A stretch of 64,000 bases of DNA from Liolophura sinensis (Eukaryota > Mollusca > Polyplacophora > Chitonida > Chitonidae). A program made the translations under genes and the position numbers. The notes under the pieces are model-generated. The model saw only the letters and a list, made by a program, of their open reading frames with translations. It was not told where the DNA came from and did not search any database. The stretch spans positions 7,499,924-7,563,923 of the forward strand of contig NC_088306.1 in assembly GCF_032854445.1 (NCBI RefSeq), in the 5' to 3' direction. Positions 25,101 to 28,100 of the stretch are shown in pieces (positions within the stretch are counted from its first letter, which is position 1; the number at the start of each line of letters is the position of its first letter).

Positions 25101-28100
25101 CTGGCTGCCGTCATATAAGTGAAATATTCTTGAGTATGGCGAAAACACCAATCAAATAAATAAATAAATAAATTCGCATGTGGGGCATGACATTTATAGA
25201 TATTCTTCTCAAGTAAATGCAGGTTGTTGTTTCTTTGAGGGTTGAAGTTCCATGTCATGGCTTTATACTATAGCATGCCCCTGGTATACACTTTTGTTAG
25301 ATTGTGTGTAATGACTGTCCTCAGTTGTATATATTTTATAAGTACACGTATGTACTTACTATGTACGTCATTGGACGAGACCCTGCTGACATATGCTACT
25401 TAAATTGTCTATGCAGGGACAAGTAGCACTGTGCAACCATCTCTTGGTTGTAATCTTGGTATAATAGCATGTAAGTTTTGCAACACCGGCCAGTGTTGCT
25501 GGTGCTAACTGTTTATACCTCTTTTCCTCCGGGTGACGCGGGCCCGTTGTTTTGCGACATTTCAATTCAGCCATGTATAATTTGGCTGTTTGCAGTTTGC
25601 TGTTGTCGCAGCTGTTTACCAGTACAAAGCTAACGTCAGTCAGTTGTTAAGTCCACTCATCCTTTGCCTGGTTATATGCTATCTGTGAGTAAGGGATAAT
25701 CATGTGCATTGCTCACAGTGTTATTTTTCACTGATGCTTTTTGATTTTATAAGTGATGCATCTTTTCTTAAGTTTGTGTTATCGTGATATTTTTGTACGC
25801 ATTTAAAACCCGCTCCTTTCTCCCTGGACATCCGAAGTGTTAACAAGTGCACTCCCACAGCAGCCTTTACACCAACTACATGTACTGTCCTCTGTATTTA
25901 GTGTATTTGGGATGTCCACAGCACGCAGGCCCCTCACTACAGATTAGGCCACTCAAACTGGCGTGTGGAGATTGAGTATTCTTTTTACCTGTTCCCTTCT
26001 TTCCTTCTCTTTTCTTTCTACCAATAAACCTGTACTTAACTGCCAGGCATTTTCAGTGGGTTTTGTTTCTCTCAAACTGATTCTACCCAGGATTTGTTAT
26101 CGTACACACTTGCCCAGATTACCGTAAGACAGTGCGGGGGTAATAATTCACCGTACACCTAGGTCTTACATATAAATGGGTATTTGGGATCACCTTTTGT
26201 TATATGTTGTCTTTATGTAATAATGTTATAAATGAGGATGTAACAGATGTTTCATGAGTATATTTGCACTAGCATTGGCCTTGTCAGCCAACAATTGTGT
26301 TCAGCCTAGATTTTTTATAATGTTTACAGTTTTAACATAGACACAAATATTGACATAATTCTGATTAAATGCGCATATTTGGAGATAAGGAATAATTTAT
26401 CTATATCCTTATATAGAACATTATTTATTAAGACGATATATACTAAGAGCTGGTTCTAAACACCCACCGCACAAAAAATTGAAAAAAAAAATTTGCAAGT
26501 AAGTTTTCATGCTCTTTTATTTGATTATAGCATCATTTTTTATGTTTTCCTCTCCTTTAAATGGCATATGCAGCGTCTAATAGGATTCCAAATATGGTTC
26601 TCAGGTTTTTGTTTTTACATTAATTAGTCTTCGACAACAAATAAAATGTAGAATATAGTGGACAGAGAGATTATAGATTGATATACTACCGTTGCTTTTT
26701 AGACCATATTTGTGATGCTGAAGTAACACCACTGATTCTCTTGGTTGGTTTTTCAGCTCTAATTGAGATTTGCATTCTTTTATTTTGTTTTTAAAATATC
26801 CATCAGTTTTGTTTTGTTTTTTTGATTCTGGATGTTCTCACATTTCACATTTACTTTCTCCTGGGTTAAAAATGCTTATTGCCTTGATATGGCAGCATTA
26901 TTGCTCGAATGGTATTAAGCCATAATCATTTATTCATTCATTCACCAACCCCCTCCATCCCCCCCTCCCCTGTTTTAGATTCATCCCGAATCGCACCAGC
27001 ACAGATGTGGAGCTAGGATATTACGCCATGATGAACCAGGATAATGACACCTCTTATCAAACCAGCAATGAATTCCAGCAGCAGTTGTCTGGGGCGTTAG
27101 GCAAAGGCTGCAACCCTCTTGACAGCAAGATCCTTTCCTTCAACCAGAAAGTGCAAGTGCATCAAGGTACTTGTAAAAATTGTCTCAGACCCTAGCCTTG
27201 GTGTTAGTGGGGAAGGTACCTTTTATTAATGCCACAGCAAACTTTTAAAAGAGCTAATTTTTATCAATCTTGGTTTTTAAGAAAGGCCCTTGTTCGTCAA
27301 TATGCAGAAAAACTAATGCACATTGTTCCCATATCAGTCTCGTGTCATGTCATCACAACCTGCTATTTCAGGCCATGCGAGTAATCTGCGTGTGTTGTAC
27401 AGCACTAGTAAATGTACTGCTCCAAAGGCCACCAATGCTCGCTTTGTCCCTAAGCAACCTGAGAGGATCCTGGATGCTCCAGACTTCATGGATGATTACT
27501 GTAAGTCAGATCCAGACTTTATGCATGATTACTGTAAGTTAAATCCAGACCTCGTGGATGTTTACTGTAAGTCAAATCCAGACTTCATGGATGATTACTG
27601 TAAGTCAAATCCAGACCTCGTGGATGTTTACTGTAAGTCAAATCCAGACTTCATGGTTGATTACTGTAAGTTAAATCCAGACCTCATGGATTTTTACTGT
27701 AAGTCAAATCCAGACCTCATAGATGTTTACTGTAAGTCAAATCCAGACCTCATGGATGTTTACTGTAAGTCAAATCCAGACTTGGTGGATGATTACTGTA
27801 AGTCACATCCAGTCCTGCACTAGTGTGGTTGTACTGTAGTTATATATGATGATAATGACTACTGAAGCCAGTTTCACAAAGCACACTTAGAGTTAAGTGC
27901 ACGTATCCTCCAAGGCGACCAGTACCGTAGGCATAACGTCTCCTTGGTAGTAAACATGAACGTATTGCTGCATGCGCTTTGTGAAACAGTGCCCTGGTAA
28001 GTACGCCTAGTGAATGATTGGATACTCACTGGATCTGCTGCGGCCTTAAGTCATGAAGTTACCAGGTACTTTGGCAAGGTACTGTAGTTACCACAGTGTT

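What the first reader, a model, noticed from the sequence alone, without database searches (positions are those of the whole stretch)
27475..27808. Ten in-frame tandem splice donors at CDC20 exon 4
Seen: the exon-4/intron-4 boundary of CDC20 is repeated ten times at exactly 33 bp. Every copy keeps TACT/GTAAGT and the reading frame is open to just after the last donor. Because 33 is a multiple of 3, using donor k adds (k-1) x 11 residues ([15 protein letters not shown]) in phase before YLNLIDW. Known: tandem donors are often used alternatively, but arrays of ten identical donors are unusual. Inference: this could produce a ladder of CDC20 isoforms with a variable linker just before the first propeller blade, or a decoy array that buffers donor recognition. 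The array is also expected to be length-polymorphic.
Basis: partly seen in the sequence, partly recalled or inferred. Interest (0 to 1): 0.9.

Follow-up and report, generated by a model that had tools for sequence, protein, structure and literature searches.

The report
Chiton CDC20 with tenfold splice donor
In a chiton's cell-division gene CDC20, the last bases of one exon and the splice signal after it have been copied ten times in a row without breaking the reading frame; the public protein record uses only the first signal, so this is most likely a DNA repeat that happens to sit on a splice site rather than a designed switch.

Summary
In detail: ten ACT|GTAAGT donors lie exactly 33 bp apart (GTs 27501 to 27798) at the exon-4 end of a ten-exon CDC20 gene, and exon 4's frame stays open to TAG 27821-27823, so donor k would add 11(k-1) residues (545 to 644 aa). 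The donor-1 product is 545/545 identical to the NCBI CDC20 of the chiton Liolophura sinensis, listed without an isoform label. An isoform ladder or decoy array is not supported by anything I could test. Best reading: a minisatellite, probably seeded by a TCCAG.C microhomology across the boundary, with donor 1 dominant and later donors minor. A second array in the gene fits this: exon 7's donor AAG|GTGAGA occurs six times, and reading past the first meets a stop at the eleventh codon. Donor invariance is statistically weak. Two extras: the gene belongs to a second, longer-branched CDC20 clade of lophotrochozoans; and of the 119 other homologues among the 120 listed, one, the clam Mactra antiquata (same clade), is annotated with a twelve-unit in-frame repeat at exactly this junction. 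No RNA data were available and the own-genome search did not complete.

The parts
21291..21432 (+). CDC20 exon 1 (coding part, ATG at 21291)
   Evidence: gene model; protein identical to NCBI Liolophura sinensis CDC20
22812..23043 (+). CDC20 exon 2
26979..27166 (+). CDC20 exon 3
27372..27500 (+). CDC20 exon 4 with donor 1 (ends TAC T|, phase 1)
27476..27805 (+). array 1: ten 33-bp copies, each 25 nt exon-4-end-like + 8 nt intron-start-like (GTAAGTCA or GTAAGTTA); donors at 27501, 27534, 27567, 27600, 27633, 27666, 27699, 27732, 27765, 27798
27806..27823 (+). right edge: CATCCAGTCC resembles the unit start; in-frame TAG 27821-27823 closes the frame
29020..29216 (+). CDC20 exon 5, starts AT (completes T|AT = Tyr), then LNLIDW
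29654..29748 (+). CDC20 exon 6
30406..30631 (+). CDC20 exon 7 (ends AAG|GTGAGA, phase 0)
30583..31219 (+). array 2: six copies (donor spacing 106, 99, 106, 106, 106) of exon-7 end + intron start; donors after 30631, 30737, 30836, 30942, 31048, 31154
31298..31423 (+). CDC20 exon 8
31892..32009 (+). CDC20 exon 9
33395..33579 (+). CDC20 exon 10 with stop TGA 33577-33579

Best explanation
The array is a minisatellite that grew across a coding exon's end. A direct repeat TCCAG.C in the end of exon 4 and 33 nt further on, inside intron 4, allowed slippage or unequal exchange, which copied the exon end together with its donor; further exchanges took it to ten copies. Because 33 is divisible by 3 and the unit has no stop in frame, an extra copy is tolerable whether spliced out or kept. 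The spliceosome mostly uses the first donor, helped by exon 4 being short there (129 nt) and by the upstream exon. Later donors are probably used at a low level, giving occasional forms with +11, +22 ... residues just before the propeller's first strand. Shown: the array, frame, donors, the donor-1 protein on record, the second array. Inferred: mode of birth, donor-1 dominance in RNA, low-level use of later donors.
For: The NCBI protein matching this gene is the donor-1 form, 545/545, without an isoform label, while the same species' other CDC20, P0057, carries 'isoform X2' (what such labels imply about annotation is recalled). A second donor array in the same gene has a stop at the eleventh codon past its first donor, and the record uses that first donor too. 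Units vary without visible constraint: in copies 2-10, differences from the consensus number 21 nonsynonymous, 1 synonymous, 0 stop (occurrences, not independent events), against 79, 14 and 6 of 99 possible single changes. Copies 3 and 5 are identical, as unequal exchange can give. TCCAGAC/TCCAGTC at the two edges. Eleven minisatellites that I picked from the TRF rows cover 11% of the window, 5% without the 4-kb array. Experimental analogue: a donor region duplicated 18 nt downstream in C. elegans unc-73 is used less than the original (PMC8865678, section 8). Human precedent: repeats at exon-intron boundaries (PMC2812944).
Against: No RNA reads were seen, and the record could rest on homology rather than RNA. 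Older splicing work (recalled) favours the intron-proximal of two equal donors, which would predict donor 10. All ten 9-nt donors are intact while 11 of 24 other columns vary (hypergeometric 0.013), which could hint at constraint; the cyclic-run permutation gives 0.06. One control array (39991, 37 bp, six copies) has a shorter longest invariant run (8) than array 1 (11), though seven of eight blocks of the 47-bp array reach 11 or more. In Mactra the annotated model reads through what looks like its first donor.
Confidence: 0.72

Rival explanations
1. Isoform ladder: several of the ten donors are used in regulated amounts, making CDC20 forms with a linker of 0-99 extra residues before the propeller that tune its function.
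For: Ten intact identical 9-nt donors, same phase, open frame to just after the last. In the clade-B CDC20 of Mactra antiquata a 151-residue repeat-rich stretch at the same junction is annotated as protein, and AlphaFold2 keeps the propeller at high confidence next to it.
Against: The only protein found for the chiton gene is the donor-1 form; a search with the insert region gave 2 hits, neither a CDC20. Unit peptide unconstrained. 118 of 119 other listed homologues show no insert.
Confidence: 0.13
2. Last-donor use: by the intron-proximal rule for equal donors, donor 10 is the main one and the real protein has 644 residues.
For: Classical duplicated-donor experiments (recalled, not read here). 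Mactra's annotated model reads through its first donor-like site.
Against: The NCBI protein is the donor-1 form. Array 2 needs its first donor unless a chain of mini-exons is spliced. In C. elegans the upstream copy is used more.
Confidence: 0.05
3. Decoy or buffer: the extra donors hold several U1 particles and raise recognition of a weak exon-4 donor (ACT|GTAAGT has the weakest modelled U1 duplex of the gene's nine donors, -5.4 kcal/mol, narrowly below exon 3's -5.6) without being cut themselves.
For: U1 duplex energies; the same value in all ten copies.
Against: Array 2 sits on a stronger donor (-9.6), so arrays do not track weakness. No evidence of selection on donors beyond borderline statistics.
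Confidence: 0.06
4. Assembly artefact: array length is wrong, the repeat being collapsed or expanded in the assembly.
For: The published Liolophura assembly rests on about 14x HiFi reads (PMC11068029, passages); the window has a 200-base gap elsewhere. Whether this window comes from that assembly is not known.
Against: Copies differ at 11 columns, and 330 bp is far shorter than the mean HiFi read of about 8 kb that follows from the counts.
Confidence: 0.03

Closest known systems
Internal tandem repeats at exon-intron boundaries of human genes in segmental duplications (PMC2812944; Results read, passages elsewhere)
   Same: Minisatellite units (about 30 bp on average) lie at an exon-intron boundary, keep the frame in most coding cases, and can be kept in or spliced out.
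   Different: There four units on average, recent primate paralogues, with RNA support; here ten units, each with a perfect copy of the annotated donor, in a cell-cycle gene, without RNA evidence.
Tandem alternative 5' splice sites (PMC2878309 abstract start, PMC1779574 listing, PMC2423196 passages)
   Same: More than one donor at one exon end; choice would change the protein in frame.
   Different: The tandem class lies 2-12 nt apart; here ten donors 33 nt apart, made by repeat expansion. Wider-spaced alternative 5' splice sites are also known (PMC2423196, passages), and a used array would be of that broad class.
Intron gain by tandem genomic duplication (PMC4974935, listing only)
   Same: Array 2 copies an AAG|GTGAG-bearing exon end; units 2-6 also have a CACCAG| acceptor-like site, framing a 27-nt mini-exon in units 2, 4, 5 and 6.
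   Different: No evidence that any new intron is spliced; unit 5 has a stop and unit 3 a 7-nt loss.
Duplicated donor region in C. elegans unc-73(az100) (PMC8865678, section 8 read)
   Same: A donor region copied downstream in a native gene; the upstream copy is used more, the downstream one less.
   Different: Engineered, two copies 18 nt apart, non-canonical donor doublet.

Membership tests
CDC20/Fizzy APC/C co-activator | CDC20/Fizzy WD40 domain | tested here: met
   PF24807 435.2 bits, cut-off 200, residues 221-514; best solved match human CDC20, 5g04_R, E 4.3e-159
CDC20/Fizzy APC/C co-activator | C-box (DRFIPxR) and C-terminal IR tail (motif names recalled) | tested here: met
   DRFIPNR at 124 and IR at 544 in P0001; KEN and CRY patterns not found in P0001, P0057 or P0090
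Lophotrochozoan CDC20 clade B (named here) | groups apart from the species' other CDC20 | tested here: met
   quick tree of 54 of 120 hits: clade B 28 rows, SH-aLRT 100; P0057 of the same species falls in the other group (18 rows, SH-aLRT 89, Priapulus included)
Exon-intron-boundary internal tandem repeats (PMC2812944) | tandem array across an exon-intron boundary | tested here: met
Exon-intron-boundary internal tandem repeats (PMC2812944) | copy number varies among paralogues or individuals | not testable with these tools
   no second allele and no paralogue DNA at hand; the genome search did not complete
Exon-intron-boundary internal tandem repeats (PMC2812944) | RNA shows a changed exon or new intron | not testable with these tools
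   only the donor-1 protein record was found
Tandem alternative 5' splice sites | competing donors 2-12 nt apart | tested here: not met
   spacing is 33 nt; range from the abstract start of PMC2878309
Tandem alternative 5' splice sites | more than one donor used | not testable with these tools
   no RNA reads
Intron gain by tandem genomic duplication | duplicated AGGT-type site able to frame a new intron (criterion recalled) | tested here: inconclusive
   array 1 has ACT|GT, no AGGT; array 2 has AAG|GTGAG and CACCAG| acceptor-like sites; splicing unknown

The most novel reading that the evidence does not exclude
Intron 4 of the second, longer-branched CDC20 of lophotrochozoans is a repeat-birth hotspot where in-phase arrays carrying their own donors arise independently (chiton 33 nt x 10; Mactra 36 nt x 12, donor sites inferred from the protein) and lengthen the stretch before the propeller, so that donor choice or copy number sets linker length.
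Probability: 0.12. Interest if true: 0.8.

Novelty: new variant of a known kind. Interest (0 to 1): 0.5.

Why it matters
It is a natural experiment in 5' splice-site choice: ten donors with the same 9-nt site and nearly the same local exon context, differing mainly in distance from the upstream and downstream 3' splice sites, beside a second six-donor array in the same transcript. Counting junctions would give a direct position curve for donor choice, a question otherwise approached with engineered duplications such as the C. elegans one. It also points to a second CDC20 in lophotrochozoans that may tolerate length change just before its propeller.

Tried and rejected
Selection on the donors: 0 of 9 donor columns vary against 11 of 24 others (hypergeometric 0.013), but the cyclic-run permutation gives 0.06. 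Controls: the longest invariant run in eight ten-copy blocks of the 47-bp array was 5, 12, 17, 21, 11, 11, 17 and 19, at or above array 1's 11 in seven of eight (a longer unit, so not a strict match); in the 37-bp array at 39991 (six copies) it was 8, below array 1. Array 2 alone: 0.055 with gap columns counted over six copies, 0.215 with the five ungapped copies, the one ending at 30836 dropped. I do not claim constraint.

Two donor arrays in one gene as proof of function: with 5% of the window in arrays (4-kb array left out; eleven arrays hand-picked from the 32 TRF rows), two or more of nine donors are covered by chance with probability 0.07, two or more of eighteen junctions 0.23. Not strong.

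Relatives with the chiton insert: the insert-region search gave 2 hits among 3630 candidates; I read both and judge them unrelated repeat proteins by eye. The Mactra insert-region search gave itself plus 25 others, judged unrelated from the listing only.

Mactra as a transcript-backed case: none of the 8 listed of 9 papers (titles and abstract starts) describes its genome annotation; its codons and donors are inferred from protein letters, not read.

Papers on arrays of identical donors: 25 of 104 listed; 16 of 16; 12 of 32; 4 of 4; 0 papers; 3 of 3. None was seen to describe one in titles, abstract starts or the passages I opened (PMC2812944, PMC12783039, PMC8865678, PMC2423196, PMC5585400). 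Most subscription papers are not held, so this is no proof of absence. (15 of 29 listed) was a look for papers on CDC20 duplicates; I opened none of them.

Own-genome search: asked 12 times, never answered, so there is no genome-wide frequency of donor arrays and no look at the paralogue's intron 4.

Full report
Observation. The window holds ten exact copies of ACTGTAAGT at 27498 + 33n and none elsewhere on either strand; TRF reports 27478-27816, period 33, 10.3 copies. Exon 4's frame is open to TAG 27821-27823. A ten-exon model gives a 545-residue CDC20 with donor 1 and 644 residues with donor 10, all nine introns GT-AG.

Species and gene. The donor-1 product is identical over 545 of 545 residues to the NCBI 'cell division cycle protein 20 homolog' of the chiton Liolophura sinensis, P0001, so the window is from that species or a very close one. 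The CDC20/Fizzy WD40 profile scores 435.2 bits, the best solved match is human CDC20, and the C-box and IR tail are present (motif names recalled). In a quick tree of 54 of the 120 listed homologues (those I could name and chose), 28 rows including the window gene form clade B with SH-aLRT 100; the other lophotrochozoan CDC20s, among them Liolophura P0057 (labelled isoform X2), form a group of 18 rows with Priapulus, SH-aLRT 89. The two groups tested there were my own guess from the listing, with 33 rows left out of the group test.

Anatomy of array 1. Each copy is 25 nt like the exon end plus 8 nt like the intron start. Eleven of 33 columns vary, none in the 9-nt donor. The edges share TCCAGAC and TCCAGTC in register, a likely seed for slippage (inference). 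Copies 3 and 5 are identical, as unequal exchange can give. Against the consensus, copies 2-10 carry 21 nonsynonymous and 1 synonymous differences and no stop, counted as occurrences. The donor's modelled U1 duplex is the weakest of the gene's nine at -5.4 kcal/mol, exon 3's being -5.6.

A second array. Exon 7's end and donor AAG|GTGAGA are repeated six times, donors after 30631, 30737, 30836, 30942, 31048 and 31154. Reading past the first donor gives [10 protein letters not shown] and then a stop, so only the first donor, or a chain of mini-exons, makes CDC20. Units 2-6 have CACCAG before TTT; units 2, 4, 5 and 6 would frame a 27-nt mini-exon ([13 protein letters not shown]), unit 5 with a stop; unit 3 would give 20 nt. 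The record uses the first donor here too. This is the best internal argument that repeated identical donors are simply tolerated.

Comparison. The 120 best of 4794 hits were listed. Of the 119 besides P0001, 117 have the same length over a 19-residue stretch across the exon-4/5 junction; P0038 begins inside that stretch and shows no insert; one, P0090 of the clam Mactra antiquata, has 151 residues between DDY and LNILDW: CKYFMD, twelve 12-residue units SNTTLSN(T/M)FYN(K/T/N), then N. CK after DDY is what a read-through T|GTAAR donor encodes, and the N before LNILDW fits A|AT, so that a donor at the S codon of a unit is plausible; these codon readings are inferences from protein letters. Mactra lies in clade B beside Spisula, which has no insert, so the two inserts look independent. 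AlphaFold2 on P0090 (56 sequences in the alignment, mean pLDDT 65.3) gives ten-residue means of 88-97 from residue 351 to 630 and 23-50 over the insert, which lies between a strand at 184-187 (low confidence) and a strand at 349-352: in prediction the place tolerates length. This is a prediction for Mactra, not for the chiton.

Mechanism. I take donor 1 as dominant with minor use of later donors. The C. elegans unc-73(az100) allele, with a donor region copied 18 nt downstream, uses the original more than the copy (PMC8865678, section 8 read; passages). SRSF1 and hnRNP A1 shift choice toward intron-proximal and intron-distal donors (PMC5585400, passages), so the balance could be regulated. Classical experiments favouring the proximal donor are recalled only.

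Known kinds. Repeats at exon-intron boundaries are described for human genes: 27 intron modifications among 80, average unit 30 bp, four copies (PMC2812944, Results read, passages). Close tandem donors are 2-12 nt apart (PMC2878309, abstract start). The chiton case is a variant: more copies, each with a perfect donor, in frame.

Limits. No RNA, no second allele, no relatives' DNA. The own-genome search did not complete (12 requests). The statistics for donor constraint and for two arrays in one gene are weak.

Noticed in passing
window 30583-31219: Second donor-carrying array in the same gene: six copies of exon 7's end plus AAG|GTGAGA, with acceptor-like CACCAG in units 2-6 that could frame mini-exons.
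   Followed up: yes
P0090 (Mactra antiquata CDC20), residues about 196-346: Twelve-unit in-frame repeat annotated at the same exon junction in a clam's clade-B CDC20.
   Followed up: partly
tree: Lophotrochozoans (molluscs, nemerteans, Owenia, Lingula) fall into two CDC20 groups; clade B has the longer stem.
   Followed up: partly
window 5951-10004: Minisatellite of 47 bp in about 86 copies, with long stop-free stretches in + strand frames (one of 981 codons).
   Followed up: no
window 42969-45308: 779-codon open frame of charged repeats with a recurring GVRKYIDWFRGRG-like motif; no Pfam match.
   Followed up: partly
window 56774-57949, minus strand: Open frame of 391 aa matching galactose-3-O-sulfotransferase (PF06990, 155.4 bits).
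   Followed up: partly
window 54641-54853 and 55511-55780: Two similar cysteine-rich frames, no Pfam match.
   Followed up: partly
window 47996-48195: Assembly gap of 200 N.
   Followed up: no
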